Assembly: GCA_902729315.2 (NCBI GenBank)
Contig: LR746265.1
Span: 9,535,892 to 9,599,891 of the forward strand
Length of the DNA: 64,000 bases
From: Spirodela intermedia
Lineage: Eukaryota > Streptophyta > Magnoliopsida > Alismatales > Araceae
Direction of reading: 5' to 3'
Below are positions 32,758 through 64,000 of the stretch, piece by piece (position 1 is the first letter of the stretch; each line of letters opens with the position of its first letter). A program made the translations under genes and the position numbers. The notes below the pieces were generated by a model. That model was given only the letters and a program-made list of their open reading frames with translations, was not told the origin of the DNA and did no database searches.

Positions 32758-33850
32758 AACTGTAAAAAATACCTCAACAAAATCTTTAGTTGGGGCCAGC
32801 ACAAATTAAAAACTATAGAACAACCACAATAAAATCTCTATTTCAGATTATAGCAATTATTGCCCCAGAATAAATAGAAAACTGTTAAAAAACCACAACA
32901 ATATCTTTTACTTGAGATCAACAAAAATTTTGGATGCACTCAAAAAAATTGAAAACTAAAAATTACTTTCAACAAAATATTTATTTGGGATATGACCAAC
33001 AATTTGATAGGCCCAAAAGGAAATTAAAAACTACAAAAAGGGCTCAACAACAATATGTCTTAGAGATTTGACTTAAGTCTTTGTCGAGATCAGAAATGAA
33101 TAAAAAAGTAAAAAAAACCTCAATAAAATATTTAATTGAAGTTGACCAACAATATTATTGCACAGATAAATTAAGTAAAAACTGCAAAAAAAACCTTGAT
33201 AAAATATTTATTCTAAATTAAACCAAGAATTTTCTTGAGCCCATGCACAAATCAAAAACTATAAAAAACCTCCACAAAATCTTTATTTGAGATTCGACCA
33301 AAATTTCACTTGGGTCCTATAACAAATCAAAATTTGTTATGACATCAAGCCTAAACAAAATCTTTATTTGACATCCCGACCAAAATTTGACTCTTGGTCC
33401 CAAACAAATCAGAAACTGTAAGAAAACCTAACAAAGGTTTTATTTGACATGGACCAAAATTTCAATTGGCCCCAAAACAAATCAAATTTTCAAAAAAAAC
33501 TCACTCAAATCTTTATTTCAGATTGCATCAAAATTTTCATGGGCCCAATAATAAATACAAAATTATAAAAAAGCTCCAAAAAACTATTTTTTTGAGATTT
33601 CTACAAAATAATTCTCCTCCCAAATAGAAAGCAAAAATTATAAAAATGCTTCAAAAAATATTAATTTAAAGATCCAGCTAAAATTTTAGTTGGGCACAGA
33701 ATAAATGAAAAATTAAAAGATAAGTTTTAAGAAAATATTTATTTAGAATTTTAGCAAATTTTTCGTTGGGCCCTGAAAGAAAGCCAGAGTTATAACGAAA
33801 GATGCAAAAAAATATTAATTTTGGATACGAATCGAAAATTTCGTAAGTCC
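32745..33850. repeat. Degenerate ~76-bp satellite, about 15 copies
   Basis: The phrase (C)AA(C/T)AAAAT(C/A)TTTATTTG recurs near 32773, 32825, 32893, 32970, 33046, 33119, 33195, 33272, 33349, 33431, 33505, 33579, 33650, 33730 and 33808. It is followed by GA-GACCAAAATTT, a GGGCCC/A-rich core and AAATCAAAAACTATAAAAA. Most spacings are 71-82 bases. The array is strongly AT-rich and holds no open frame. Confidence 0.8.
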
Positions 33851-47694: not shown

Positions 47695-48032
47695 TTTAAA
47701 TACATACTATCTAATAATATCTATAACTAAAACTTAATAAAATACTAGCATAGAAGTAGGTCTCAAGTCGAACACAGGGAGATTGAGTAACTTCTCTTCA
47801 CAACTAATTTAATTTATATAGAAATTTATTTTAATATTTTCTTAATACTTAACAGAAAAAATAAAGAAAAAGAAAGGGAAGCGGAGAAAAGGAATGAGGG
47901 AAAGAGAGAGAAGACAGAGCTCTCCCGAATGAAAGAAAGGATGAGATCTCCTGTGAAAGGGATAGAAAGAGAGATCTACGTGAAAGGGATAGAAAGAGAG
48001 ATCTACGTGAAAGGGATCGAAAGGGATATAAA
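47695..48032 (+). repeat. Dispersed repeat, copy 2
   Basis: Parallel to 26745-27125 (shared TATCTAATAATAT, AACTTAATAA and TTTAATTTATATA blocks, then a GA-rich tail). Its end carries a 24-base direct repeat (GTGAAAGGGATAGAAAGAGA at about 47951, 47977 and a variant). It ends at the telomere-like motif and poly(T) of LINE copy 2. Confidence 0.6.
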
Positions 48033-48049
48033 TTTAGGGTTTAGGGTTT
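48033..48049 (+). repeat. Telomere-type repeat at the LINE copy 2 tail
   Basis: TTTAGGGTTTAGGGTTT, two and a half plant telomere units, followed by GGC and a 14-base T run (48053-48066), the poly(A) tail of the minus-strand LINE. Confidence 0.8.
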
Positions 48050-48115
48050 GGCTTTTTTTTTTTTTTGTTAAAGGTTTGATTATATTGATGTTGAGAAAAT
48101 GTTTATCCCAGAGCC

Positions 48116-51100
48116 TCATACGTGAGATCTAGGCGAGACAAGACATAGCTCTCTTAGGAAAGTGGTAAATGAATGACGATGTTGTAGACGCGATTGATGT
48201 TGATCATCTCGGTTGAGACTGTTGTGATATCCTCCCACCAATAATGCGAGGATAGCTTTGTGTTGGTGGTGCTGCGTACAGCAGGTGGTGTTCGGGCTTG
48301 GGGTTGGCCCAGTTGATCCACCACTGTTGAGGGGCGACAGGTGTGTTTGACGTATACGAAGTGCTGCCATGCCGATCTGCTCTAGGCGATATTGACCTGG
48401 AGCTTCGGCCGATATCTCTTGCCTAGAGGAGAATACAGAGCACAGGTGAGTGCATACTGTATGTGTAGCGAGCGCGTCTGCCGTCTTGTTCCCTTCACGT
48501 AACTGGTCTGTAATGGCGCTGATCCTTGCTCTATAACGCATGATGTCGGTCCAAGTACTTTGAAGCCAGCACGTAGAGGAACCTGCACGTAGCATCTGAA
48601 CAAGTACTCATGAGTCACATTTTGCTACGATATCATGGAGATTGAGTTCCTCACAGAGGATCATTCGGGGAGACTGCCTTTTCTGCAGTGTAAGTTTGAA
48701 TGTAATAATAATAAGAGAAGGCAAAGATAGTACTCCCCGTATGATTCTGTAGGATGCCTCCTCCTCCTGCAGGTGTAGGGTTCCCTCGGGCTCCTCTATC
48801 AACGTTCAACTTTAGGTTTCCAGTAGCAGCAGTTTTCATCGGACGACCCGAGTGGGGATCTCTATGCGCGTAGGCGTGCCTTGGACTCCTAGGTCCTAAG
48901 GGCCTCACAGATTCAGGCTGCGTATTTCACTGAAGGCGACACCAAAGGATGGGTACTTCACAGCCATTGTGTGAGTGTTTCATGATCTCTGGTGCGCGCA
49001 TCTGTTGACCTTGAAAACAAGAGAGATTTCACTCCTTCCATATGCCCCTAGAGCTTTGCGGCAAATGAAAGGTTCTATTGAAAATCTCTAGGGGTGTAAG
49101 AGTCAGAGAAGGATCAAATGTTAGGGTCTAATTCACTAAGAGTGGGTTCCAATATTTCGTAACAACAACACTATGAAAAAATAAGTGGCCCATAGTTTCC
49201 CTACTCGGAGTGGTGAGACAATAATGACACTTAGAACAGATGTTATGTCCTGTGATGGACATACGATCATCCATAGGAACTTTGCGGTGCGTCAATTTCC
49301 ACATAAAGATAGAGACTTGAGGTACAATAGTAGGGTGCCAAATGAGGTATCCCCAAAACTTTTTTCCAAAATGATTTCTAAAGTAAATCCAAGAAGAACT
49401 ACAAGAAAAATGCCCATCTAGGGTAAGAGTTCAGACGGGGTGATCATAACTAGGACTCAACTGTATCAACGAGGTCTCTGGTAGTAAATAAAATGAGAGT
49501 CCGTGCCTCTCGAGGAATACATTAGTATCTCCTTCGAGATACTGAGCCACCGTGAGACGAGGCTAGGATGGCATAAAGGAGGTAAAGGAGGCCAACGGAG
49601 TATCCGCAAGCCAAGTATCATACCAAGCACTGATATGCTTCGTCCCACTCGCTATCAGATTAAAGGCCTCATCTGCAACCATTGTCTTCTCCAATCTGTC
49701 CATCGCTTCCCTCCTTTTTTGTCAGTCAGTTGGTTAGCACAATCGCCGTATTTGGCTAGCACAAAGGTCCTTAGGCGTGATCTTTTTGTCCTCATCCACT
49801 ATATGAGTTTCTTCTGAAGCATGTCGAGGATATCCTTAGGGCATGCAATCCCTATGCCACCGTCGTCCATCAGTCGACAAGCTTTGTCCCAAGAAACTCG
49901 ACGTTAATGATGAGGCCTGTCGAGTTGACCATCCCATAAGAAGGAGGTGCAAATCCACCTCAGAGATCATAAGACGGTGTCCGGTACCGCATGTACCGTA
50001 AGTAGGTGCAAGGGCATAATGATGAGGACATGGCGTATCAACTGGATGCGACCACCTGAGGATAGAAGCTGAAGGGACTCAAAGTAATGAACCTGAGTGC
50101 ATCCGAGGAAGATGGGGCATCCAAGGTAATCAAAAGGTAGATGACCATGCGAGAACCCGGTTCGGTTCTGTATGCATCGTATGGTGCTAATGGTGGCAGA
50201 AGATGCCACCATGAAGCTACTCTTCGAGGCATTTACAAGGTTATCTGCGGCCTGCTCGTAGCTCGAGATGATAGTCATGAGTCCCCTAATGAACACTTCG
50301 CACCCATTAAGGAAAAGTATCGCATCATCATTAAGCAAAGAATATGATATGATTGGGCAACCCGTCTTTGAATTATTTGGTTAGATAATCTCATAAAGAC
50401 ATCTTAAACATATATGAAGAGAGTGGGTGATATGGGATCACCCTGTCGTAACCCTCACCTGGCCATGAAGAAAGGTGTGGAAGTACCATTCACCAATAGG
50501 GAGAAATGGTTCTCCCTAATGCATGCATCGACTACTCCAGTGAACTCGTCGGTTAATCCGAAGCGTCGAAGCACTTCGGTAAGGAAATTCCACTTGATCC
50601 TATCAAAAGCTTTTTCCATGTCTAGTTTGATGATGACGTTAAAACCACGGATGTCCTGGTCAAAGGATTTGTGCTAATTCGTGAACTATCATGATGTTAT
50701 CATGAATGTGCCGTATCTTAAAAAATCTACACTGCTCTAGAGATATGAGCCTATCAAGAAAAAAACTCAGTCGTACTGTAATGATCTTTGATACAACTTA
50801 ACAGCACACATTATAAAGACTGATGGGCCGAAAATCTCTAAAAAAAGTTGGATTGACGACTTTTGGTTTGAGTGCAATAAACGTGGCTTTTAAACTTTAT
50901 GGGAAGACTATGTGACGGAAGAATTCTTCGATGGCATCAACTAAATCTGTTCCAACGATGTCCCAACATCTTGAATAGAAATCTGCTGGAAAACCATCCG
51001 CTGAAAACACTCACTCGAACTTGTCTCGCCCAAGTGTCATCAGTCAATCGAGCCTGCAGTTGTCTCTCGACCGCAGCTAGCTCATTCTTCAACTCTTCTA

Positions 51101-51955
51101 CCTGGGTGTGGATATTCTCGTATACATGAGAGTTCCACCATTAAAGGTGCAGTCTGGGATTTCTCAATTTGTAACTGAGCTTATCCATAGGAGAGTCTGA
51201 GATATCTCTATGACAATGACTCTGCACGAAGCTTTGGAGGCCTTCGTGCTGAGTCCACATATTTTGAAACCTAAAAGGGGGTCTAGGGGTACTAGCTCTC
51301 GAGTCAGGAAGAATAAGGATGAGCATGTGATCTGACCTATAGCGAGTTAGTAGTGTGACTGATATGGGACGTTGCACTATTGCAATGTTATTAGCAAAGC
51401 AGCGATTGATGTGCTTATATATCCTTGCACCACGTTGAGACCTTCTTAAAAGTAGGAGGCTTGATGAGGGCCGCGTGAAAAATAAAATCATTGAATGTCT
51501 GCATGTGACGGGCCCGAGGGACCTATCCCCCTTGATGTTCAGTGATTCTACAACAAAGGAGAATAAATTAGTATAGGATAATTCCACGTATATCGTAATA
51601 GGTCTTCCCAAAAAGTCTCACGATCTTGGTGGCTATGTGAAGCATAAATGACCGAGAATATTTGCTCTTGGCCATAGCCTAGTACCTTTATCGTAACATG
51701 TTTTGGCCTTTCAAGTAGTAATTGAGGAGAATATGATCTCTTTTAGAACAACCAGATCTAGCTCGTAGGGTTAGAATGAAACTGATCCATGCCTAGGCGT
51801 CTAAGCAATGGGTGAATGTGATCTGATGGTATCATAGGTTCAATAAGCCGGACAAGGCTTCGTTGGTGCTTATTGATGAGTTCAATAATGTGGGACTGTG
51901 TTTCGAGCCTAACCTTCGACAGTTCCAAATAAGGCTAGGTATCATGAGTGGTGGT
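48116..51955 (-). pseudogene. LINE copy 2 ORF2 relic (EN-RT-RNase H)
   Basis: Recognisable pieces: endonuclease end with RYRSDHMLILILPDSRASTP (51330-51270); RT pieces including LNDDAILFLNGCE where copy 1 has LFADDAILFLNGG (50330-50300); HLPFDYLGCPIFLG (50150-50110); RNase H with LKLNVDRGARGNPTPAGGGG (48820-48760) and REGNKTADALATH (48500-48460). The FADD box is altered to NDD. Several frames are needed to follow it. Confidence 0.85.
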
Positions 51956-51959
51956 GGCT

Positions 51960-53943
51960 ATTGCCACGAGCCCTAGATCTTGTGACATATGGAGAGCGTC
52001 TTCATAAAGGCTTATCTACCATCTCTGTCTGGTATCCTCTCTGAAGGTCAATTCCCTAAATAGGGAGATCCAACGAGGACTCAGATCAAGAGTGTTCAGC
52101 ACTCGATGTAGAGCACCTGCTAGTGTCCTTCACTGAGGATAAAAGAGAGATTACTCGACGATTCGTTAAGCATTCTTCCCTGTTAGGGCTCTCATGCTGC
52201 CTCGAGCTCTCTAAGGGTGTGATCGATGGTTGATCTGGAGGTTGGGGTTGCAGGGAGGGAGAAAGAGAAAGAGAAGGTCTGATGATAGACAGAGTGTAGA
52301 GGGTCTAACAGATGAAGGGGAGCTAGTTGGTGACTGAGAGGTAGTAAGAGGTGAAGGTCCGATAGATGGAAAGGAGCTGGTTGAGGGTGAAGTAGTAGTA
52401 GGGCCCCCCCTGTTTGGGGGAGTGTCGTCAAACTTATGGGCTGATATTGTTCCCTATGATCGGAACAATGTCAGCCTCCTCGGTCAAGGTACCTATAGTT
52501 TCAAAAACATTCGATGTCTCAACTATCTTCCCCTTACCTGCTGATATGAGGGGTGTTTGGCCTACTACCATCTTCTTTCTCTTTCGGGTGGATGTGGATG
52601 CTCGAGAGATAAGATGTGACACCGATGTAAGTGGGGTTGTCCTACCAGGACCGGCTGAAGGGACACCAGTCTGGACCAAGAATGGTCGAGAGGGAGGACA
52701 CGAGCTCTGTATGGGAGGGCGGCTAGGTAGTCTTCCCTTCCTCAGTGATATAATCATGATACAACATAGGTGGTAGATAACTCACGGCAGACTCTGAAGA
52801 TGATGGGGTGGTTTTATGTCGACAAGTGTGGATGTTGTGTTCAAAAACTGTTCGGTGGGTACAAAAAATAGGTAGTCTTTCGTATATAACTATTTGAAAG
52901 ATTTTCTCATCCTCATTCTGCACAATGATCATGCGCTGAAACGGGGCCAAGAGGTCTATCTCTACACATACTCGTGCATAACCTGGGTGGTTAAATATTT
53001 TAATTCTCGGATCTAGGCGTATAAATGTACCGACTGTATTCGTCAAAGACTCAAGTGCCTTAGGCGTGAACAAATGTGCTGGTAGACTAGGAAAACGTAT
53101 CCAAACTCGAATGGAGTGCGGTTGTCTCCGTCGGAAAATACTATATGTCTGTGGGGTCTATCTATATGTATGCATAATGGTATCTTGGATCTCTCATATA
53201 GTCTTACTCCAGGCTTTCCGATAGTCAGCCTCAAGCTCAAAACGGATAAAGACGCTGCGATAATCACGGGCGCCGATGACTACTTTACCCTGAAAATGTC
53301 CAAGGGCCAAATAGATCTTATAAATATCATTTAGGTGGGGACGTTTTGTAGAGAAGCATCCTATCAATGAAAATTGGAAGGCCTCCGCCAATTGGGAGAC
53401 CTCCTTCGAGGAAAATGAGACTATTATCATTCCCCCTTTATCAGTGTAACCCCATGACGGTATTCTGTCATCATAAGTCGGGTGTAGCTTGCATCTCGGT
53501 GTATTCGTCAATGTAAGAGTGGGCTATTGTCCTACTAGTCCCTGGGCGCAAGACTTGGCTCTGGCCTGGGTGGACTATTATCATTTGATGCCTGAGCAGC
53601 TCTGGTTTTAGTGGTTTTGGCCTGTTCGTCTAGCTTGGGTGGGCTGTGCTTGAGTATGCTGGGCCAGCCCGGTCTGCGCTTGAGCGGCCTGGACCTGAGC
53701 GGTCTGGGGCTGAGCAGTCTGAGCCGGTGGGTCCTGGGTCGGTGCTGCCTGGGCGAGTGAGGCTTGGGCCGGCGTGTTCTGGGCTGGTGAGGCTTGGGCT
53801 GGCGTGGTCTGGGCCGGTTTAGTCTGGGCTGGTGCCTGGGTCCTAGTAGCCTTGGCCTTCAGACCCTTGGGCTGCACGGTCTTGGCCGGCAGGACTGTGC
53901 TCCATGCAACCTCGGCCGGCTGGGCCTGAGACGGAGTTGCCAT
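51960..53943 (-). pseudogene. LINE copy 2 ORF1 relic with Pro/Gln/Ala repeat N terminus
   Basis: The likely ATG at 53943 opens a low-complexity region of PAQ/TQA repeats (about 53860-53640; for example TPAQASPAQNTPAQASLAQ). Downstream in other frames are the DUF4283-like domain (FSTKRPHLNDIYKIYLALGH, 53360-53290; RDYRSVFIRFELEADYRKAW, 53265-53205), YARVCVEIDLLAPFQRM and a zinc knuckle whose third ligand is changed (CTHRTVFEHNIHTC, about 52850). In copy 1 this N-terminal part lies outside the window. Confidence 0.75.
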
Positions 53944-54261
53944 GGCCAGTATGGCTTCGGCTAGTGTGGCTTGCTCCGGCTCAGCCCTGGTTTCCGAAAC
54001 CTGGGCCAGCGTGCTGTGAGCCAGGTAAATCAGTAGATATTACCCCGAGAATATAACGTTCTGGAAAATACCTCTCAAGGGAGAAATCACAAGACCGAGA
54101 GCATCAATCAATCATTTTCCACGCTTGATGGCTCGAATGAAACAAGTTTCAGCACGAGCCGAGGTCAGATGAGAGAGATCTCGCTCTTTGAATGTGATGT
54201 TGATGAGAGAGAAGCTTCTGCGAGGAGAAAGAAAAAAGTTGAACAAATGATGTGTTGAAGG

Positions 54262-54690
54262 TTTTTTTTTTTTTTTTTTTTTTTTTGCAGAACTGTCCTA
54301 GGCCGAACGTCTCGGGATGTCACCTATTCTAGTACTTTACGCAGCCAAGCACTTTTTGGTGCCTCTCAGCACATTCTGTAGAGATAGATGCCACTAGTGC
54401 CTCTCGGCATGGTGGTGTAGGGTTGCCTCTTGGCAGGTTTTTTTTCAGAGCTGGGTGCCTCTTGGCTCGTTGTTGGTGAGATGGCTGCCACATGTGCCTC
54501 TCGGCATGGTGGCAGTGGTGCCTCTCGACACAGTCTTCGAAGGAGATTGCCTGTCGGTATGTTGTGAGGTGGATGCCACATGTGCATGCTTAATGCAGTG
54601 GTGCCTTTCAGCACATGCAGAGCAGGCCCCTCGATGCGCACGCTTAACTCCGCAGTTCGTATGGGGTCCGGTGCCAACTCTCCCACTTAG
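54262..54690 (-). mobile_element. 5S-derived retroelement unit A with poly(A) tail
   Basis: On the minus strand: a 5S rRNA 5'-domain piece (CGGACCCCAT...GAACTGCGGAGTTAAGCGTG, about 54672-54637), then a body of ~86-98 bp repeats with small hairpins, then a 5S 3'-domain piece (CTTGGCTGCGTAAAGTACTA with GGTGACATCCCGAGA, 54351-54308), a short tail and a poly(A) of 25 bases (54286-54262). It is the most diverged of the three units. Its A-tail meets the 5' end of LINE copy 2. Confidence 0.65.
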
Positions 54691-54694
54691 GTGG

Positions 54695-54807
54695 GTTGGG
54701 TTTAGGGTTTAGGGGTTTAGGGTCTAGGGTTTAGGGTTTAGGGTTTACGGTTTAGGGTTATAGGTTTAGGGTTTAGGGTTTAGGGTTTTAGGGTTTAGGG
54801 TTTAGGG
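54695..54807 (+). repeat. Interstitial telomeric repeat array (TTTAGGG)n
   Basis: About 15 TTTAGGG units with a few variants (TCTAGGG, TTTACGG, an inserted ATAG). It directly follows unit A and runs straight into the T run that is the poly(A) tail of truncated LINE copy 3. Confidence 0.92.
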
Positions 54808-55994
54808 TTTTTTTTTTTTTTTTTTTTTGAAATGAAGAAATTTGATTGAGTGCTATAAGTTTGACCTCTTTCTGAGGTTACATAAGTGGGATCTCATTCG
54901 CACAAGGGGCAAGGATGACATAGGGGATTAAAGACCTCTTTTGAAGAAGGGATGTGATAATACTGGAGATAGACTCCAGTGTGCTCATCATATTTGAAGA
55001 AGGCGGTTGATTTGCATTGGGCTGGAAGAGCTTTTGAGTTCATGAAGTTGGAAGATTCGCTCAACAGTAGTAGGACATGTAGACCTCCATGTTGTGCGCC
55101 ATGAGGTGTTCCTGTAAGACAAGAGTTTGCTGCAGTAAGTGATTCTAAGAAATAAATAAAATGATATAAAGCGGTGAGAAAAGAGTGGTTAGGGTAATGA
55201 GGAGGATAGAACTATGCTGGATCATGACAATAAGCCCAAATATGAACTTGCCTTCCTAGTGTTGCATGCGCCTAATCCCTCTAGCCAAGATCTTGTTAGT
55301 ACCATCAGTTGCCGTACTTCCTCTAACTAGGTACAGGACCTTTCACCCCACGAGAAATGACTTGGTCTCTTTTTCTAACTCTTTTCTTTTCTCTTATTCT
55401 CTCTCTCTTTTTTTGTTTTGTTTTTGAGGGCCTCTTCTTTTACCCTCCACTAATGCCCATTATTTGGTGTCTAGTGATTAGGAGAAGGGAAGTAGGTTGC
55501 CTCCCCTTTTTTTTTTTTTCTTATTTTTTTTAAGGGCCCTTTCCCTCACCCTCCACTAATTGTCTATGATGGGCAAGTGATTCCGGGAAAAGAAGTAGGC
55601 TGACTCTTTTTTTTTGTTTTGTTTTGGTTTTTTTTTTTTAAAGAGAGAGAAAGAGAGGGAGAGAGAAATAGAGAATCGAGAGATAGAGAGAGAGGAGAGA
55701 GGGTCAATCCTATGGATATAGATCCTTACTTTCTCATGGGTTCAAGCTGGCTGATGGTACTAATGAGATATTGAGAGAGGTGCTACGTTGTCGATTCACA
55801 GCTAGTTTGGCGGGTCTGATGTGCTATAGACCTATAGTTCAAAAGTGGGCAGATGCCAACATGTGCTGATAGTTCTGTGTCCTCATTGCTTGAGGGTGAT
55901 AGATAATAGATGTGAGGTAATTATGAAGAGAGTAATGATTGGAAGTAGTGTACTCGGGTGGATTACGATGTGCCTTGTTGTCCGTCTTGTGCTG
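54808..55994 (-). mobile_element. LINE copy 3: 5'-truncated, 3' UTR only
   Basis: From the T run (54808-54828, poly(A) on minus) to 55994 the sequence is nearly identical to 57040-58204, the 3' UTR of LINE copy 1, including the internal T-rich tracts. Homology ends abruptly after GTTGTCCG(T/G)(C/T)TTGTGCTG, 18 bases short of the ORF2 stop codon. The next bases are telomere-like ATAGGGTTTAAGG. Abrupt 5' truncation plus A-tail is the hallmark of target-primed LINE insertion. Confidence 0.88.
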
Positions 55995-56007
55995 ATAGGG
56001 TTTAAGG
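55995..56007 (+). repeat. Degenerate telomere-type motif between LINE 3 and unit B
   Basis: ATAGGGTTTAAGG joins the 5' truncation point of LINE copy 3 to the poly(T) of unit B. Confidence 0.6.
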
Positions 56008-56434
56008 TTTTTTTTTTGTTTTTTTTGGGATAACTGTCTTGGGCCGAACTTCTCGGGAGGTCACCCATCCCGGTACTTCACACGCCCAAGCACTTTGGTG
56101 CCTCTCAGGCACATTCTTGGGAGATAGATGCCACTTGCGCCTCTCGACATCGTGGCAGGGGTGCCTCTCGGCACATTCTTCAGAGTTGGGGGCATCTTGA
56201 CATGTTGAGATGGATGGCACATCTGTCTCTCGGCATGGTGGCAGGGGTGCCTCTCGGCACGTTCATGGCATGGTGACGGAGGGGTTCGTAACACATGCTG
56301 GGCAGCACGATCATGCAGCGGTGCCTTTCAGCACATGCACACATACCCAGGGAGGTCACCCATCCAGGGACTGACCCCACCCGAGCACGCTTAACTCTAG
56401 AGTTCTTATGGGATCCGGTGGCAACTCTCCCACT
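56008..56434 (-). mobile_element. 5S-derived retroelement unit B, with near-complete 5S head
   Basis: On the minus strand a head at about 56430-56345 reads as almost contiguous 5S rRNA: CCGGATCCCATAAGAACTC, GAGTTAAGCGTGCTCGGGT, then GGATGGGTGACCTCCCTGGG. This covers the internal promoter (box A, intermediate element, box C). Then follow two ~87-bp hairpin repeats, a second 5S 3'-domain (GTGCTTGGGCGTGTGAAGTA, CCGGGATGGGTGACCTCCCG, 56094-56055), GGGCCCAAGACAG-like tail, TTATCCC and an interrupted poly(A) (56026-56008). No open reading frame of interest is present; frames here only read the tandem repeats. Confidence 0.75.
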
Positions 56435-56462
56435 TAGGGGGTTTAGGGCTTAGGGCTTAGGG
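56435..56462 (+). repeat. Telomere-type repeats, CTTAGGG variant
   Basis: One TTTAGGG and three CTTAGGG-type units between unit B and the T-rich tail of unit C. Confidence 0.8.
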
Positions 56463-56467
56463 CTTTT

Positions 56468-56498
<31 letters not shown>

Positions 56499-56966
56499 TT
56501 GGGATAACTGTCTTGGGCCGAACTTCTCGGGAGGTCACCCATCGCGGTACTTCACATCCCCAAGCACTTTGGTGCCTCTCAGGCACATTCTTCGGAGATA
56601 GATGCCACATATGCCTCTCGGCATGGTGGCAGGGGTGCCTCTCGGCACATTGTTCGGAGCTGGGGCGTCTTGGCATGATGAGATGGATGCCACATATGCC
56701 TCTCGGCATGGTGGCAGGGGTGCCTCTCGGCACGTTCTTCGGAGCTGGGGGCTTCTTAGAATGGTGAGATGGTTGCCACATATGCCTCTCGGCATGGTGG
56801 CAGGGGTGTCTCTAGACACGTTTTTCGAAACTTGAAGCATCTTGGTATGGTGTTGGAGGGGTTCGTAACACGTGCTTGGTGGCACGATAATGCAGCGGCG
56901 CCTTTCAGCACATGCAGAGCACGCTTAACTCCGGAGTTCTTATGGGATCCGGTGGCAACTCTCCCA
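56463..56966 (-). mobile_element. 5S-derived retroelement unit C
   Basis: Minus-strand order: 5S 5'-domain (CACCGGATCCCATAAGAACT, CCGGAGTTAAGCGTGC, 56955-56918), about three hairpin repeats with an 85-86 base period (GCCACATATGCCTCTCGGCA on plus at about 56604, 56689 and 56775), 5S 3'-domain (GTGCTTGGGGATGTGAAGTA, CCGCGATGGGTGACCTCCCG), TTATCCC, and a poly(A) with a few G interruptions (56500-56464). It is close to unit B but lacks the contiguous 5S head. Possible pol III transcription from box A and box C is inferred. Confidence 0.75.
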
Positions 56967-57039
56967 CTTAGGGGGGTTAGGGCTTAGGGCTTAGGCCTTA
57001 GGGCTTAGGGTTTAGGGTTTAGGGCTTAGGGTTTAGGGC
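56967..57039 (+). repeat. Interstitial telomeric array, mixed TTTAGGG and CTTAGGG
   Basis: About ten units, with CTTAGGG and TTTAGGG interleaved, immediately followed by the T run that is the poly(A) tail of LINE copy 1. Confidence 0.9.
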
Positions 57040-58221
57040 TTTTTTTTTTTTGAAGAAGAAGAAATTTGATTGAGTGATAAAAGTTTGACCTCATTCCGAG
57101 GTTACATAAGTGGGATCTCATTCGCACAAGGGGCGAGGATGACATGAAGAATGAAAGACCTCTTTTGAAGAGGGGATGTGATGATACTGGAGATAGGCTC
57201 CAAGGCGTTCATCATATTTGAGGAAGGTGATTGATTTGCATTGGGTTGAACTTTGAGTTCATGAAAGTTGGAAGATCTGCTCAACAGGAGTAGGACGAGA
57301 GCTCCATGTTGTGCGCCATGCAATGTTCCTGCAAGACAAGAGTTTGCTGCAGTAAGTGATTCTAAGAGATAAATAAATTGATATAAAGTGGTGAGAAAAG
57401 AGTGATTAGGGCAGTGAGGAGGATAGAACTATGCTGAAGCATGACAATAAGCCCAAATATGAACTTGCCTTGCTAGTGTTGCACGCGCCTAATCCCTCTG
57501 GCCAAGATCTTGTTAGTATCATCAGTTGCCGTACTTCCTCTAAGTAGGTAAGGGACCTTTCACCCCACGAGGAATGACTTGGTCTCTGGTTCTAACTCTT
57601 TTCTTTTCTCTTATTCTCTCTCTCTTCTTTCTCTCTCCTTGAGGGCCTCTTCTTTTACCCTCCACTAATGCCCATTATTTGGTGTACATTAGGCTAGTGA
57701 TTAAGGGAAGGGAAAAAGGTTGCCCTTTTTTTTTTTTTTTTTTTTTTTGGTTTTAGGGCCCTTTCCCTCACCCTCCACTAATTGTCTATGATGGGCTAGT
57801 GATTCCGGGAAAAGAAGTAGGCTGTCTTTTTTTTTTTTTTTTTTTTTTTTTCTAGAGAGAGAAAGGGAGGGAGAAAGAAATAGAGAATCGAGAGAGAGAG
57901 AGAGGAGAGAGGGTCAATCCTATGGATATAGATCTTTACCTTCTCATGGGTTCAAGCTGGCTGATGGTACTAATAAGATCTTGAGAGAGGTGCTAGGTTG
58001 CCGATTCACAACTAGTTTGGCAGGTCTGATGTGCTATAGACCTATAGTTCAAAAGTGGGCCGATGCCAACATATGCTGATAGTTCTATGTCCTCACTACT
58101 TGAGCATGATAGATAGTAGATGTGATGTGATTATGAGGAGAGTAATGATTGGAAGTAATGTACCCGAGTGGATTACGATGTGCCTTGTTGTCCGTGTTGT
58201 GCTGTATCTCCATTGTGGTCT

Positions 58222-61200
58222 TCAGCGGCCAATAGTAACCACCCCTGATCTCCTCCAAGCAATACGCCACTGTCGTGGAGAGGCCGGTAGTGGAGTGCGG
58301 TGTATGCGTAAAGAGGGTATGCCGAGTCGCTCAAGTCTATGAGCACCTCGGGCTTCCAGGGGCATGTCCTGCCAAAAAGAGAAGACTGTCCTCCGACGCG
58401 ATCTGACTCCATGCGCAGCAAGGGCGTCAGCTGTCTGATTCCCTTCTCGGAATTGATGCGTAATAGTTGTGATGCGTCCTCGACATCGCATGATGTCTGC
58501 CCAGATATTCTTGAGCCTCCAATGAGGACAAGAGTCTGCACGTAACATGTCCACTAACACTTTGGAATCAGATTCTAAGACAATGTTAGTAATATTTTGC
58601 TCCTCACAAAGAAACAAACCATCCCGTATTGCCATAGCCTCTGCCACAGTATTAGTTTGTATATTATAAAAGTTCGAAAAGGCAAAGAGAATGCATCCTG
58701 TACTATCGCGTAAGATACCGCCTCCTCCAGATGATCCTGGGTTGCCTTGAGATGCTCCGTCGACGTTGAGTTTCCACTGTCCAGCCCTCGGTGGTGTCCA
58801 TCTAACAGATCGGACAGTAGTCCAGGTCTGTGTAGGTATGATATGGAGTCCCCAAAGCCCAAAAGCCTCACAAACAGAACGCGAGCGTTTCGTTTTATTT
58901 GGCACTAAGGAATGAGTACTCCGAAGCCATTGTGTTACGTGCCTCATAATCTCTGTGGCACGCATCACTTGGCCTGCATATCGAGATGAGTTACGTCCCT
59001 TCCATATTTCCCATAACATATATGCTATGGAGATACGGATGAAAGGACAAACCTTGACACTCGTCGGTGAGTCAAAGACTCTCCTAAAGACCTCTAGTGG
59101 TGGTCTCGTAGGTCTGTACGAGAGCATTGGAAGCCAATTCGCTAGAAGTTGACGCCAACACTCGACAGCGATATCACTATGGAAAAATAAATGTTCCATA
59201 CTTTCGTCTGTCGTGATGGAGCAACAATGACATTTCCTTTCCACCTCCTGATCGGTGACAATCACTCGATCGTCGGTGGGTAGTCCTCGGTGCATGAACT
59301 TCCACAGGAAGAACGAAACACGAGGTGTGATGGCCGGATGCCATATGAGATTTCCCCAAAATGTCTTTGGGGAGCGGTTTCTAAAGTGCTCCCAAGAGGA
59401 GCTACAAGAGAAACTGCCATCTATGGTAAGTGTCCAGATGGGTTGGTCCTCAGTAAAACTCATCTCAGTCATGGTGATGGCTGGTAACAAGTCCGACGGT
59501 AGTCCATGCCTCTCAATAAGTAGACGAGTGTCTCCTTGGAGAAGCTGGGCTACCGTCAAGCGAGGCCAAGAAGATGTGAAAGTGGTAAAACAGGCCAATG
59601 GTGTGTCCTCTAGCCAAGTGTCGTACCAGGCACTGATCTCGCCTCGCCCCACTCGCCAACGAATAAGAGGCACCATCTCCAACCAATGTCGCTGCCAGTC
59701 TGCCCATCGTTTGACTCCTTTGATGTCAGCCGGCTGTCGAGCCCACTCACCATATTTGGCTGACACAAAAGTACCTAGCACCGATGGTGTGGTCCTCATC
59801 CTCCAAATGAGTTTCTTTTGAAGCATGTTAAGTACATCTTGAGGGCGCCTAATACCTAGGCCACCCTCATCCGTAGGTCGACATGCTTTCTCCCAAGAAA
59901 CTCGGCGTTGACGACGAGGTCCCTCAAGTTGTCCATCCCAAAGGAAGGACGTACATATCCGTCTAATAGTCTGTAAGACGGTGTCTGGTACCTCATGGAC
60001 TGCCAAAAGGTGTAATGGTATGCTCATGAGGACATGGCGTATCAACTGGATCCGTCCTCCAGGGGATAGAAGTTGTAACTTCCATCCTGCTAGTTTCTTC
60101 CTTAACTTGCCCACTAGGGCGTCAAAATAGTGTATGCGCCTACGGCCGAGGAAGATAGGACATCCTAGATAGTCAAAAGGTAAGTGTCCACGAGAGAACC
60201 CTGTTAGGCCCTGGATGCGTCGTATGGTCCCTATGGGAGTAGAAGGGGCTACTATGAAGCTACTCTTCGAGGCATTTACGAGTTGACCTGCAGCTCGCTC
60301 ATACCTCGAGATAATACTCATGAGCCCTCTAATGGATGTCTCACCTCCATTGAGGAAGAGTATCGCATCATCAGCAAAGAGGGAGTGTGAGATGATCGGG
60401 CAGCCCCTCTTCGAGTAGTATGGTCGGATAAGTCCTTGATTGATCGCTCGGGTGAGGGATCGACTGAGGACTTCTTCAACTAAGATGAAGAGGGTGGGTG
60501 ATAGTGGATCGCCCTGTCGTAGACCTCTCGTGGCCGTGAAGAATGGTGTGGAGCTACCGTTCACTAATAAAGAGAAATGATTCTCCCTAACACATGCATC
60601 GACTAAGTCAATGAAGTCGTCGGTGAACCCAAAGCATCTAAGAACCTTAATGAGGAAACTCCACTCTATCCTATCAAAGGCCTTCTCCATGTCTAATTTG
60701 ATGATGATGTTAGAGCCTCGACAATCATGGCCAAGGGACTGTGCTAGTTCATGTACTAGCATGATGTTATCGTGAATGTACCGTCCCTTGACAAATCCGC
60801 ATTGTTCTGGAGATATAAGTCTATCAAGGAAACTACTCAATCTACGTGTAACGATCTTAGATACAACTTTATAACACACGTTACACAAACTGATAGGTCG
60901 AAAGTCTCTAAATGAGGTTGGGGTAGTCACCTTCGGTATAAGTGCAAGGAAGGTGGCCTTCCAACTTCGTGTAAAGAGTTTACGACGAAAGATTTCCTTG
61001 ATGGCCTGGATGAGATCAGTGCCAACGATATCCCAACATGAAATGTAAAAATCAGCTGGGAAACCATCTGGCCCGGGTGCACGATGTCTGCTCATAGAGA
61101 AAACTACTTCCTTGATCTCTTCTCCCGTGGGTATGGCTGTTATGAGAGAGTTCTCACGGTGAGTGACCAATGACGGGATCGAAGTGAGCATATCATCAGA

Positions 61201-62418
61201 AATCTCAATCGGCTGAGAGGTTAAGAGAGTACGAAAGTACTCAACCCCTGCCTCCTGCATGCGGGAAAGGTCATGATCATATGTCTCTAAAAGAGAGGTA
61301 TAATCTGAACGTGAGCGATGAGCGACCGAGGCATGAAAGAAACGAGTGTTTCTATCACCCTCTTGTAACCACTGGATGCGTGATTTCTGGAGATAGAATA
61401 ACTCCTGTCGTCGCACAACCTCATCAAGCTGGTCACTCACTCTACTCCTCCTTTCCCAAGCAGCATCTGAATATCTAGCTTGCAGTAGTCTTTCAACTTC
61501 TGCTAACTCTTTTTGCAATGCATCAACTTGGGTATGGACATTCCCATAGATATGTCGGTTCCACCATTTAAGGTGGAGTTTGAGATTCCTTAACCTATAG
61601 CTAAGGTTCTCCATAGGAGAATCTGAGATCTGTCCGTACCAGTGATTCCGTACGAAACTCTGAAAGTTTTCATGTTGGAGCCACATGGTTTGAAATCTGA
61701 AGGGGGGTCTGTGGGTGCTCATACTCTGTTTAGGGAGTATGAGGATCGGGGTGTGATCTGACCTATAACGGGGTAATATCGTGACTAATATGGGATGTCG
61801 CATCATGGCGATGCTGTTGATGAAACAACGATCGATACGCTCATAAATCAAAGCGTCCCCTCGATTGTTGCTCCACGTCCATGCCTCGCCTGATGTAGGT
61901 GGCTCAATAAGAGCTAATCGAAAAATACAGTCATTGAACATCTCCATGTTACGGGCCCTAGGGATTCGCCCACCTTGACGTTCACTAGTATTACGGACAC
62001 AGTTGAAGTCACCTGCTAGGTACCAAGGAGACTCAACTAGTGTAGGGTAGTCCCTCACGTATTGAACTAGGTCCGCCCAAAGAGTTTCTCTTTCTTCGGA
62101 TCTATGTGATGCATAGATGACCGAGAAGGTGAACTCTTGGGTGAGATCTCGAGCCGTCATAGTGATATGCTGGGGTCCCTCGACTAGCAACTCCATAGAG
62201 TATGGTCTAGTCCAAAAGATCCAAATATGATTCGTGGGGTTGGAGTGAAAATGATCCATACCTAACCTCCTAAGTAAGGGTTGGATACGATCTGATGATA
62301 TCATAGGCTCAATGAGGCCTACTATACCTAGTCGATACTGTCTGATAAGGCTAGCTATATAGAATTGGGTTTCGAGGTTGCCTATACCTCGACAATTCCA
62401 TATGATGCTAGGTATCAT
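58222..62418 (-). CDS. LINE ORF2: endonuclease, reverse transcriptase, RNase H
   Basis: The 1398-residue polyprotein has an N-terminal apurinic-type endonuclease (about 1-230: WNCRGIGN at 7-14, Glu in LIEP at 37, AGDFN at 135-139, RSDHTPI at 219-225). The reverse transcriptase follows (about 485-770: KLDMEKAFDRIEW at 574-586, GLRQGDPLSP at 632-641, catalytic FADD at 681-684), then a zinc domain (about 1030-1095: KCHCC at 1062-1066 and EHLFFH at 1075-1080). The C-terminal RNase H is at about 1215-1340 (catalytic Asp1220 in LNVDG, Glu1260, Asp1284 in ESDS, Asp1331 in TADALA). This layout is typical of plant L1-clade LINEs with a plant-type RNase H. It nicks target DNA, primes reverse transcription from the RNA 3' end and removes RNA. 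The start ATG follows the ORF1 stop by one codon in the same frame. Confidence 0.95.
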   Translation of the reverse strand: MIPSIIWNCRGIGNLETQFYIASLIRQYRLGIVGLIEPMISSDRIQPLLRRLGMDHFHSNPTNHIWIFWTRPYSMELLVEGPQHITMTARDLTQEFTFSVIYASHRSEERETLWADLVQYVRDYPTLVESPWYLAGDFNCVRNTSERQGGRIPRARNMEMFNDCIFRLALIEPPTSGEAWTWSNNRGDALIYERIDRCFINSIAMMRHPILVTILPRYRSDHTPILILPKQSMSTHRPPFRFQTMWLQHENFQSFVRNHWYGQISDSPMENLSYRLRNLKLHLKWWNRHIYGNVHTQVDALQKELAEVERLLQARYSDAAWERRSRVSDQLDEVVRRQELFYLQKSRIQWLQEGDRNTRFFHASVAHRSRSDYTSLLETYDHDLSRMQEAGVEYFRTLLTSQPIEISDDMLTSIPSLVTHRENSLITAIPTGEEIKEVVFSMSRHRAPGPDGFPADFYISCWDIVGTDLIQAIKEIFRRKLFTRSWKATFLALIPKVTTPTSFRDFRPISLCNVCYKVVSKIVTRRLSSFLDRLISPEQCGFVKGRYIHDNIMLVHELAQSLGHDCRGSNIIIKLDMEKAFDRIEWSFLIKVLRCFGFTDDFIDLVDACVRENHFSLLVNGSSTPFFTATRGLRQGDPLSPTLFILVEEVLSRSLTRAINQGLIRPYYSKRGCPIISHSLFADDAILFLNGGETSIRGLMSIISRYERAAGQLVNASKSSFIVAPSTPIGTIRRIQGLTGFSRGHLPFDYLGCPIFLGRRRIHYFDALVGKLRKKLAGWKLQLLSPGGRIQLIRHVLMSIPLHLLAVHEVPDTVLQTIRRICTSFLWDGQLEGPRRQRRVSWEKACRPTDEGGLGIRRPQDVLNMLQKKLIWRMRTTPSVLGTFVSAKYGEWARQPADIKGVKRWADWQRHWLEMVPLIRWRVGRGEISAWYDTWLEDTPLACFTTFTSSWPRLTVAQLLQGDTRLLIERHGLPSDLLPAITMTEMSFTEDQPIWTLTIDGSFSCSSSWEHFRNRSPKTFWGNLIWHPAITPRVSFFLWKFMHRGLPTDDRVIVTDQEVERKCHCCSITTDESMEHLFFHSDIAVECWRQLLANWLPMLSYRPTRPPLEVFRRVFDSPTSVKVCPFIRISIAYMLWEIWKGRNSSRYAGQVMRATEIMRHVTQWLRSTHSLVPNKTKRSRSVCEAFGLWGLHIIPTQTWTTVRSVRWTPPRAGQWKLNVDGASQGNPGSSGGGGILRDSTGCILFAFSNFYNIQTNTVAEAMAIRDGLFLCEEQNITNIVLESDSKVLVDMLRADSCPHWRLKNIWADIMRCRGRITTITHQFREGNQTADALAAHGVRSRRRTVFSFWQDMPLEARGAHRLERLGIPSLRIHRTPLPASPRQWRIAWRRSGVVTIGR

Positions 62419-62421
62419 GAT

Positions 62422-64000
62422 CTAGTGAGTGGCCCCACGAGTCCTAGATCTCGTGGAGTAAGGTGAGCGTCTAGTGAGTCGTGTGGTCCTAACCTCCGTC
62501 TGATATCCCTCCTCTGGGTAGGTAGTCTCAATGTCAGTCTCAGAGCTACCATCCTCATGGGTACTAGTCGTGTGGCCCGTAGTATCATGAGCACTAGATG
62601 AGGAGGATGGGTGTGGTGCTTGACGATTCGTTAAGCACTGTCCTCTATCGGGGCTCTCCCTAGAATCAGCGGGTGGTGGATCAAGTATAGGAAACTGATC
62701 TGACGGTTGTAATAGGGGAGAGGGGGGGAGGGTATAAGAATCAGAATGGGGGGCTATGTAAGATGTACTAATAGGAAGTATGCTGGGGGTAGACCCTCCT
62801 AATAGATCATCAACGGGGATTTGAGGTGGATGGATAGGGCCCAAGCCTATACCCTCAGAGGAAGGGGTAGACCTCGGTCGGTGGGGACTAAGAGGTGAAG
62901 GACTCCTTCTACGTGGGGACGAGTGAATGGGCGGGGAGGAGCTGGGTGGTGGAGAGACACTAATGGGTGGAGTGGGGTGGGTGAGTATGGGGGGTCGGAT
63001 AACCCGGGGGGATCTAGTATGGGGGGTTGGACTAGGTGAGTCCCTCGTAGTGGAGGATGCTAGCCCTTTGGAAGGCCTAGTTCCCCTTTGTGCAGGTCCC
63101 TCAAAGTCTCTCTCATCTAAAGCCCCTAAGACCTCGAAGGTGTTTGAGGTTAGGGGTTGCTTTCCCTTGCTCAAAGGGGAAGGTGTAGCCTCTCGTGTTC
63201 CTTTCTTCCCCCCTGTGTAGGTGGAAGAAGGGCGTCCAGCTGCCGGCTTTCGCCGTGTATGCTGTGTCTCAATCAGTGAGCTAGGCTTCTCCTGTGCCTT
63301 CCGAGGTAAGGAAGGTGGAGCCGCCATAGGGGCAATCGACCTCTGAGGATGACGAGCACTCTGAGCATCCTTTCTCATTTCGACGAGGTAATCGTCATAT
63401 GAGATCGGTACTAGAAAGGCTCGTGTGGTCGTCTGTGGTGTACATGCCTTCTGACGGCATGTGCTGACAGTGTGGCCCAAGATCGCACAGTGTGTGCAGA
63501 AATACGGTAGTCTCTCATAAATGATGGGCTGATAAAGTTCATCATCTCCACTACGTATAACGAGAGTCCTCTGGAGGGGAGCCATTAGGTCCACCTCTAT
63601 ACAAACTCGTGCATATCCGGGTCGGTTGAACATTTTTACGCCTGGATCAAGGCATATGAATGTTCCCACCGCATTTGCCAAAGACTCAAGTGCCTTTGGC
63701 GTAAATAAATGGGCAGGTAGGCCAGGGAAGCCCACCCATAATGGAACCACATGAGACTGATGTGCTTGGTGCCCTATGTCATTTTGTGGTGTCCATCTGT
63801 GGGTATGGAGGGTAGACTCCCCCATTCTCCAAGTGGGTCGGCTCCATGCTCGGCGATAATCCGCTTCTAGCTCAAAGCGGATGTATATGCTACGATAGTC
63901 TCGAGCTCCGATGGAGACTCGGCCCTGAAAATTTCCAGGTGCCATGTAAATCTTCTCTATGTCACCTATGGTTGGTCGTTTCGTAGTGAAACGACCAACT
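62422..64000 (-). CDS. LINE ORF1 (partial): DUF4283 RNA-binding protein with zinc knuckle
   Basis: The frame is open to the window edge; alignment with LINE copy 2 shows that VGRFTTKRPTIGDIEKIY, upstream of the first in-window Met (63945), is part of the protein, so the true start lies beyond 64000. Visible domains are an RRM-like DUF4283 module (RDYRSIYIRFELEADYRRAW; LWVGFPGLPAHLFTPKALES; GYARVCIEVDLMAPLQR) and a CCHC knuckle, CTHCAILGHTVSTC. A long Ser/Pro/Thr-rich, probably disordered tail follows, ending in ...RGATH and TAG. ORF1 proteins of this type bind LINE RNA to form the particle. At least 525 residues are in the window. Confidence 0.92.
   Translation of the reverse strand, partial: VGRFTTKRPTIGDIEKIYMAPGNFQGRVSIGARDYRSIYIRFELEADYRRAWSRPTWRMGESTLHTHRWTPQNDIGHQAHQSHVVPLWVGFPGLPAHLFTPKALESLANAVGTFICLDPGVKMFNRPGYARVCIEVDLMAPLQRTLVIRSGDDELYQPIIYERLPYFCTHCAILGHTVSTCRQKACTPQTTTRAFLVPISYDDYLVEMRKDAQSARHPQRSIAPMAAPPSLPRKAQEKPSSLIETQHTRRKPAAGRPSSTYTGGKKGTREATPSPLSKGKQPLTSNTFEVLGALDERDFEGPAQRGTRPSKGLASSTTRDSPSPTPHTRSPRVIRPPILTHPTPPISVSPPPSSSPPIHSSPRRRSPSPLSPHRPRSTPSSEGIGLGPIHPPQIPVDDLLGGSTPSILPISTSYIAPHSDSYTLPPSPLLQPSDQFPILDPPPADSRESPDRGQCLTNRQAPHPSSSSSAHDTTGHTTSTHEDGSSETDIETTYPEEGYQTEVRTTRLTRRSPYSTRSRTRGATH

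What the first reader, a model, noticed from the sequence alone, without database searches (positions are those of the whole stretch)
48033..64000. Head-to-tail array of poly(A) retroelements whose tails run into CCCTAAA telomeric repeats
Seen directly: six poly(A)-tailed elements, all on the minus strand, follow each other from 64000 down to 48033 (LINE 1, unit C, unit B, LINE 3, unit A, LINE 2). In five of six the poly(A) is followed by CCCTAAA-type repeats (57039-56967, 56462-56435, 56007-55995, 54807-54695, 48049-48033). Only unit A's tail meets another element directly. Known: SART/TRAS in silkworm and Zepp in Chlorella insert in or build telomeric arrays, and HeT-A/TART do so in flies. 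Inference: these plant LINEs and their short partners either target telomere-type repeats or carry them as part of the tail, which would be a plant counterpart.
Basis: partly seen in the sequence, partly recalled or inferred. Interest (0 to 1): 0.88.

Follow-up and report, generated by a model that had tools for sequence, protein, structure and literature searches.

The report
Telomere-invading LINE and SINE in duckweed
At the very end of a duckweed chromosome, and at most other chromosome ends of the same genome, copy-and-paste DNA elements (a LINE and a small 5S-RNA-derived SINE) sit inside the telomere repeats, nearly all pointing the same way, an arrangement known from some insects, fungi and an alga but that a 2025 review says had not been found in plants.

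Summary
The window's last base is the last base of its contig, so the array is terminal as assembled. Assembly size matches Spirodela intermedia clone 8410 (inferred). Genome-wide, A8(CCCTAAA)2 occurs 62 times, its reversed control 0 times. Of the 59 on chromosomes, 55 lie within 60 kb of an end (0.94 expected), on 27 of 36 ends, 54 of 55 with the 5' side outward. Poly(A) running into the opposite telomere strand: 0. The LINE is a plant L1 type with an open ORF2; the short units are SINEs with a 5S rRNA head. Copies outside telomere repeats carry ordinary target-site duplications, several at T^AA, as TTT^AGGG offers. Best reading: LINE and SINE insert into telomeric DNA by target-primed reverse transcription, in TRAS1-like orientation; exchange between ends then shuffles copies. 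Addition at the terminus with telomerase healing is not excluded, and the family is enriched at telomeres, not confined to them (24 of 39 best 3'UTR matches are interior). A 2025 review knew no such element in plants. New variant of a known kind.

The parts
57052..64000 (-). LINE 1 (5' part cut by the contig end): ORF1 part, ORF2, 3'UTR; L1-type LINE
   Evidence: 64000 is the contig end
62422..64000 (-). ORF1 (partial) of LINE 1, DUF4283; a zinc-knuckle match lies under Pfam's cut-off
   Evidence: a copy at C5 left end has 916 open codons
58222..62418 (-). ORF2 of LINE 1, 1398 aa, open: endonuclease, reverse transcriptase, zf-RVT, RNase H-like (RVT_3)
   Evidence: Pfam
61700..62418 (-). APE-type endonuclease domain of ORF2
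   Evidence: Pfam Exo_endo_phos; model pLDDT 92.9; near L1 and TRAS1 endonucleases
57040..57051 (-). poly(A) of LINE 1
56973..57039 (-). telomere-type tract (CCCTAAA / CCCTAAG) after LINE 1, before unit C
56501..56976 (-). unit C: 5S-headed SINE
   Evidence: (weak 5S match)
56464..56500 (-). A-rich tail of unit C
56439..56465 (-). telomere-type tract after unit C
56018..56443 (-). unit B: 5S-headed SINE
   Evidence: (weak 5S match)
55996..56017 (-). poly(A) of unit B and short degenerate telomere-type sequence
54829..55995 (-). LINE 3: 5'-truncated copy (3'UTR only), 89% identical to LINE 1
54808..54828 (-). poly(A) of LINE 3
54698..54807 (-). telomere-type tract, about 16 units, after LINE 3
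54287..54697 (-). unit A: SINE of the same family
   Evidence: 71-77% to units B and C
54262..54286 (-). poly(A) of unit A, joined directly to LINE 2
48067..54261 (-). LINE 2: second subfamily, with its 5' region, reading frame decayed
48053..48066 (-). poly(A) of LINE 2
48033..48046 (-). two CCCTAAA units, inner border of the array

Best explanation
A plant L1-type LINE (at least two subfamilies) and a poly(A)-tailed SINE with a 5S rRNA head insert into (CCCTAAA)n at chromosome ends by target-primed reverse transcription. Proposed steps: the LINE endonuclease nicks the G-rich strand at TTT^AGGG; the freed ...GGGTTT-3' end pairs with the RNA's poly(A); the copy ends up with poly(A) toward the centromere and its 5' end toward the chromosome end, between telomere repeats. 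Telomere tract stays or is re-made outside it, so later insertions build a head-to-tail terminal array. The SINE is presumably moved by the LINE's enzymes. Exchange between ends spreads copies further. Shown: positions, orientation, junction phase, repeats on both sides, open ORF2, endonuclease fold, shared blocks between ends. Inferred: the nick, the SINE's use of LINE proteins, present activity.
For: 55 of 59 poly(A)-CCCTAAA junctions on chromosomes within 60 kb of an end, 54 of 55 5'-outward, 27 of 36 ends; opposite-strand junction 0; reversed control 0. ORF2: 25 of 32 terminal, 25 of 25 5'-outward. Family-independent zf-RVT survey: 60 of 108 terminal, 54 of 60 5'-outward, 30 of 36 ends. 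SINE: of the first 100 listed matches 84 are within 60 kb; within 90 kb 88, 86 of them 5'-outward. Junction phase A|CCC in 52 of 59 distinct junctions (44 exact, 8 with substituted bases), P = 2.5e-7 against 4/7. A truncated LINE with telomere repeats on both sides (C5). SINE arrays directly inside telomere at C3 and C16 right ends. Copies outside telomere repeats with target-site duplications at T^AA-like sites. Catalytic positions kept and L1/TRAS1-like endonuclease model.
Against: The family is not confined to telomeres: 24 of 39 best 3'UTR matches and 7 of 32 ORF2 matches are interior. 4 of 59 junctions are interior and one terminal junction points the other way (C9:29351). P values treat clustered and duplicated copies as independent. 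C14R, C4R and C5L share one identical tail, and C1R/C6R a duplicated block, so part of the spread is exchange. 5' LINE ends are less uniform in direction (23 of 29 within 60 kb 5'-outward). Phase and orientation do not separate an internal nick from priming at the terminal overhang. Interior copies show T^AA in only some cases (3 of 6 duplications).
Confidence: 0.68

Rival explanations
1. Terminal addition: the RNA's poly(A) pairs with the natural 3' overhang (...TTTAGGGTTT) at a chromosome end and is copied without a nick, HeT-A-like; telomerase then caps the new end. Arrays grow outward.
For: Predicts the same orientation and the same A|CCC phase; long perfect tracts outside elements; open LINE copies are terminal.
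Against: The endonuclease is conserved and copies elsewhere have duplications, so the usual nick-based route exists. No test here distinguishes the two at telomeres.
Confidence: 0.2
2. Few ancestral insertions spread mainly by ectopic recombination between chromosome ends (gene conversion, break-induced replication in telomere repeats).
For: C14R, C4R and C5L share an identical stretch of about 640 columns including the T12A22 tail, while C4R is 89-99% identical upstream. C1R and C6R share SINE matches at one constant offset. C9L looks like a tandem SINE array.
Against: Tail lengths, truncation points, subfamilies and tract lengths differ among most ends examined; two LINE subfamilies and a SINE share the pattern; exchange does not explain the fixed phase.
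Confidence: 0.08
3. No telomere preference: ordinary L1 insertion everywhere, with survival only at gene-poor chromosome ends.
For: Interior copies with ordinary duplications exist; weaker-scoring, probably older LINE fragments are less terminal (16 of the 40 lowest-scoring against 30 of the 40 highest).
Against: Survival does not predict that insertions sit in CCCTAAA itself, with one strand and one phase (63 matches against 0).
Confidence: 0.03
4. The CCCTAAA repeats are part of the elements' own 3' tail.
For: In the window the repeats follow five of six tails.
Against: Several copies elsewhere have poly(A) followed directly by a target-site duplication. Repeats also precede elements; tract length runs from 2 units to about 860 bp.
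Confidence: 0.01

Closest known systems
TRAS1 (Bombyx mori, R1-clade telomere LINE)
   Different: L1-type ORF2 with RNase H-like domain, not R1; also found at ordinary sites; plant host; a SINE shares the niche. R1 clade of TRAS1 recalled and in PMC10088271 passages.
SART1 (Bombyx mori)
   Same: Telomere-repeat-inserted LINE with poly(A) tail.
   Different: SART joins poly(A) to AGG, the opposite orientation (PMC7265360 passages); that junction was found 0 times here.
Zepp (Chlorella) and Zepp-like L1 LINEs of green algae
   Same: L1-type LINEs in Viridiplantae clustered at chromosome ends in Chlorella, listed as telomere-associated (PMC10088271, PMC3446292 passages).
   Different: In Coccomyxa the clusters are mostly one per chromosome and internal; the original Zepp paper was not held, so junctions were not compared.
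HeT-A / TART / TAHRE (Drosophila)
   Same: Head-to-tail terminal arrays with poly(A) toward the centromere (recalled).
   Different: There they replace telomerase repeats (PMC10088271 passages); here long TTTAGGG tracts exist.
SINE3-type 5S-derived SINEs
   Same: Non-autonomous, 5S rRNA-derived head (PMC10886601 passages; here).
   Different: Plant host and telomeric placement; no published plant 5S-SINE seen (capped listings).
Cassandra (plant LTR TRIM with 5S in its LTRs)
   Same: Plant retroelement with 5S promoter region (PMC10853983 passages).
   Different: Units here end in poly(A) and show no LTR pair; the 5S part is a 5' head.

Membership tests
Plant L1-type LINE | ORF2 with APE endonuclease and RVT_1 reverse transcriptase; ORF1 upstream; poly(A) tail | tested here: met
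   best homologues are plant LINE proteins, about 45% identical
Plant L1-type LINE | Placement in the L1 clade by a tree | not tested
   No tree built; inferred from domains and homologues
TRAS (R1 clade) | Insertion in telomere repeats with poly(A) joined to the C-rich strand | tested here: met
TRAS (R1 clade) | Endonuclease nicks the G-rich telomere strand at T^A | not testable with these tools
   Only consistent junction phase
TRAS (R1 clade) | R1-clade reverse transcriptase | tested here: inconclusive
   Homologues listed are plant LINE proteins; no tree with R1
TRAS (R1 clade) | Strict telomere specificity | tested here: not met
   24 of 39 3'UTR and 7 of 32 ORF2 matches are interior
SART | Poly(A) joined to the G-rich strand (AGG) | tested here: not met
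   0 matches
HeT-A/TART | Replace telomerase-type repeats at ends | tested here: not met
   (TTTAGGG)n at C3 and C16 contig ends
HeT-A/TART | Terminal head-to-tail arrays of one orientation | tested here: met
Zepp | Sequence relationship to Zepp | not tested
   No Zepp sequence at hand; paper not held
5S-derived SINE (SINE3 kind) | 5S rRNA-like head with poly(A) or short tail, no ORF | tested here: met
   Rfam 5S over cut-off in 3 matches on L067 and L082; window units only weak, E 0.08 and 0.25; tails
5S-derived SINE (SINE3 kind) | Pol III transcription from the 5S-like promoter | not testable with these tools
   No expression data
5S-derived SINE (SINE3 kind) | Target-site duplication at an ordinary site | tested here: inconclusive
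   One interior copy (L067) with GTTTCCTTCAATA on both sides, read by eye, the second copy 11 bases behind the SINE end and no poly(A)
Cassandra | 5S sequence inside a pair of LTRs | tested here: not met
   Units have one 5' 5S head and a poly(A) end; no LTR pair seen

The most novel reading that the evidence does not exclude
In this clonally growing flowering plant, chromosome ends are hybrid structures built jointly by telomerase-type repeats and a two-part retrotransposon system (L1-type LINE plus 5S-SINE). The LINE's T^A-cutting endonuclease, for which the plant telomere repeat offers a site every 7 bases, has made the telomere its main home, and insertion together with exchange between ends helps to maintain or rebuild chromosome ends.
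Probability: 0.2. Interest if true: 0.95.

Novelty: new variant of a known kind. Interest (0 to 1): 0.85.

Why it matters
[quoted passage not shown] Here is a dense case in a small, sequenced, mainly asexual plant, with open LINE copies at several ends, so telomeric insertion, its need for the endonuclease and its effect on end maintenance become directly testable. It would add an L1-type element of a flowering plant to the list of telomere-dwelling LINEs that arose separately, and it offers a simple reason: TTTAGGG contains an L1-type T^A site in every unit. A SINE in the same niche suggests that a parasite of the LINE follows it to the telomere.

Tried and rejected
Rejected: (1) repeats carried in the tail: several copies elsewhere have poly(A) followed by a target-site duplication. 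(2) Purely local duplication in this window: 27 of 36 ends. (3) Cassandra for the units: no LTR pair, poly(A) tails. (4) A phase-locked 5' junction: I first read the SINE 5' junction (45 rows) as fixed, but an interior SINE (L067, C11:548 kb) carries AACCCCCC at its own 5' end, so those bases belong to the SINE; LINE 5' starts vary too much. No claim is made on 5' phase.

Led nowhere: sequence search of the endonuclease against solved structures gave only weak, unrelated matches. The homologue search lists 120 of 2587 proteins, the best about 44-47% identical, none from a duckweed by name, so presence in other duckweeds is unknown. G4 motifs in LINE 1: 2 on the G-overhang strand, 0 on the other, too few to use. 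The endonuclease fold is shared with APE1 and exonuclease III at nearly the same Z, so it says nothing on telomere specificity.

Literature: searches listed no paper on a telomere-inserted LINE or SINE in a flowering plant. The listings are capped (for instance 20 of 313, 12 of 5261), only open-access papers are held, and of the papers opened I saw passages, not whole texts.

Limits: genome searches score only the best candidates, so most counts are lower bounds; the zf-RVT search scored all of its 147 candidates. Left contig ends looked at begin with N (first 2500 bases of C5; first 60 bases of C1, C7, C8, C10, C12, C15, C18), so what caps the left arrays was not seen. PMC7645714 says all 18 pseudomolecules of clone 8410 end in telomeric sequence at both sides, yet here C2R ends inside a LINE, C10R inside a SINE and C12R in neither. 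The tail script uses a narrow pattern that misses the C2 block and merges identical copies (L006, L007, L008). Of its 24 LINE rows (13 called telomeric) one is a duplicate (L031/L074) and one spurious (second L015 row), leaving 12 of 22. Of 35 SINE rows 33 were called telomeric, one wrongly by eye (an L066 row), so 32 of 35; these loci were best hits, not a random sample. In one search, 4 of 9 copies outside telomere repeats gave an exact duplication; bounds for L029 were set wrongly, and its duplication and the imperfect one of L016 are read. One of the 9 (L002) is near C16's left end, nested in another LINE. My notes said 7 repeats at C15R, at least 9 copies on C2 and 89-97%; rechecked, these are about 6, 8 and 89-99%.
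Full report
WHERE THE WINDOW LIES. A whole-genome search places the window at G000:C2:9535892-9599891; contig C2 is 9,599,891 bases long. The genome has 136,496,439 bases in 32 contigs, 18 of them chromosome-sized, the largest 13,401,826. This matches the Spirodela intermedia clone 8410 assembly: 136.6 Mb, 18 pseudomolecules, largest Si09 at 13.4 Mb (PMC7645714, passages read). The species name is inferred from that match. That paper gives LINEs as 0.42% of the 8410 assembly; the passages that I saw mention no telomeric LINE.

THE OBSERVATION. The six poly(A) elements, their common strand, their order and the five telomere-type tracts are as stated. LINE 1 has an open 1398-aa ORF2 with endonuclease, reverse transcriptase, zf-RVT and RNase H-like domains, and an ORF1 with DUF4283. 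A copy at the left end of C5 has an ORF1 of 916 open codons. LINE 3 is a truncated relative of LINE 1 (89%); LINE 2 belongs to a second subfamily, its frame decayed, 64-73% identical in blocks over 100 bases. Units A, B and C are one SINE family. Their heads match 5S rRNA only weakly in the window (E 0.08 and 0.25); better-kept copies on L067 and L082 exceed Rfam's cut-off in 3 matches (42.9, 40.2 and 38.2 bits; cut-off 38).

GENOME-WIDE PATTERN. A8(CCCTAAA)2 occurs 62 times, the reversed control 0 times. Of the 59 on the 18 chromosomes, 55 are within 60 kb of an end (0.94 expected), 54 of 55 with the 5' side outward, on 27 of 36 ends; the other three lie on the small contig C30. The opposite-strand junction was found 0 times. 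ORF2 (33 matches, 433 candidates): 25 of 32 on chromosomes are terminal, 25 of 25 with 5' outward, on 18 ends. A survey that does not start from this family, with Pfam zf-RVT, gives 110 matches, 108 on chromosomes; 60 are within 60 kb of an end, 54 of 60 with 5' outward, on 30 of 36 ends; among the 40 highest-scoring 30 are terminal, among the 40 lowest-scoring 16. SINE (208 matches, 40 of 121 candidates scored): of the first 100 listed, 84 lie within 60 kb of an end and 88 within 90 kb, 86 of these 88 with 5' outward, on 23 ends. The 5' region of LINE 2 (38 matches, 36 on chromosomes): 29 within 60 kb, 23 of 29 with 5' outward. Against this stands the 3'UTR probe: of the 39 best matches on chromosomes only 15 are terminal (14 of 15 with 5' outward) and 24 interior, 8 of the 24 being one insertion amplified on C2, with one shared flank. 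Full-length ORF2 copies without a stop number 5 of 33: C2R, C14R, C18L, C8L and one on C30; none of the 7 interior matches is free of stops. All P values treat copies as independent, which clustering and duplication violate; the number of ends hit is the safer measure.

ANATOMY OF ENDS. C14R: LINE, A22, then about 860 bp of CCCTAAA. C1L: LINE, A32, about 217 bp of telomere repeat, SINE, A9, about 112 bp of telomere repeat, SINE, A27. C5L: LINE, A22, telomere repeats, truncated LINE, A49, telomere repeats, SINE. C16R: SINEs, then about 1.5 kb of telomere tract in the stretch read. The last 101 bases of C3 and C16 are (TTTAGGG)n; C15 ends in a SINE head plus about 6 repeats; C12 ends in neither. 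Where it could be seen, the array sits in or directly inside the telomere. Left ends begin with N and could not be read to the tip.

RNA COPYING. Several copies have, near the ORF2 stop, a stretch with GT..AG borders that LINE 1 and its close relatives lack, as expected if a spliced RNA was the template (inference).

EXCHANGE BETWEEN ENDS. C14R, C4R and C5L share an identical LINE 3' end of about 640 aligned columns, including the T12A22 tail and the start of the telomere tract, while C4R is only 89-99% identical to C14R in the full windows upstream. C1R and C6R share SINE matches at one constant offset, so four of the 59 junctions are two pairs of copies. Insertion is not the only force, and I give no number of independent insertions.

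COMPETING MODELS. A nick inside the tract and priming at the terminal overhang followed by telomerase predict the same orientation and 3' phase. I favour the first because the endonuclease is conserved and copies elsewhere have duplications; the second keeps 0.2. Tail-borne repeats are contradicted by copies elsewhere. Survival bias alone predicts neither strand nor phase.

NOVELTY. PMC12477314 (2025 review, passages) states that no similar telomeric retrotransposons had been found in plants; it names Penelope-like elements in Selaginella and subtelomeric Retand in Silene. PMC10088271 (passages) lists Zepp1 of Chlorella as the Viridiplantae example. My searches (capped listings of an open-access library) showed no counterpart in a flowering plant. 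I file it as a new variant of the telomere-dwelling LINE kind: new lineage and host group, relaxed instead of strict telomere use, and a 5S-SINE in the same niche.

Noticed in passing
L006 (C14R), L007 (C5L), L008 (C4R): Three chromosome ends share an identical LINE 3' end of about 640 columns with tail T12A22 and adjoining telomere repeats, although C4R differs upstream: a trace of exchange between chromosome ends.
   Followed up: partly
G000:C1 about 11.38-11.46 Mb and C6 about 10.09-10.16 Mb: Right ends of C1 and C6 share SINE matches at a constant offset of 1,296,666 bases: a large shared subtelomeric block or an assembly duplication.
   Followed up: no
G000:C2 8.48-8.81 Mb (L016-L021, L023, L025): Eight copies of the LINE 3'UTR carry the same flank (CTAGYTAGAAAGA...), in both orientations: one insertion amplified by segmental duplication.
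   Followed up: partly
LINE 3'UTR, e.g. L003, L004, L005, L008, L012; absent in LINE 1 at window 58200: A GT..AG stretch behind the ORF2 stop is present in several copies and cleanly missing in LINE 1, C14R, C5L and C1L copies: looks like a spliced 3'UTR intron.
   Followed up: partly
G000:C9 5.4-15 kb (L077, L078, L083): Near-tandem SINE array with short CCTAAACCC spacers, possibly on its way to a satellite.
   Followed up: no
G000:C1 11.10-11.12 Mb: LINE/SINE/CCCTAAA block 350 kb inside the right end of C1: perhaps a former chromosome end moved inward.
   Followed up: no
contigs C10, C14, C17: Contig lengths 7185000, 5780000 and 3802500 are multiples of 2500, and C5 begins with exactly 2500 N: probably scaffolding or masking in fixed bins.
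   Followed up: no
window 47934-48023: 27-bp minisatellite (about 3 copies) directly inside the inner border of the array.
   Followed up: no
window 1874-4918: A 1014-codon open frame on the minus strand encodes a pentatricopeptide repeat protein.
   Followed up: no
window 33188-33715: Diverged minisatellite of about 75-bp units, 7 copies.
   Followed up: no
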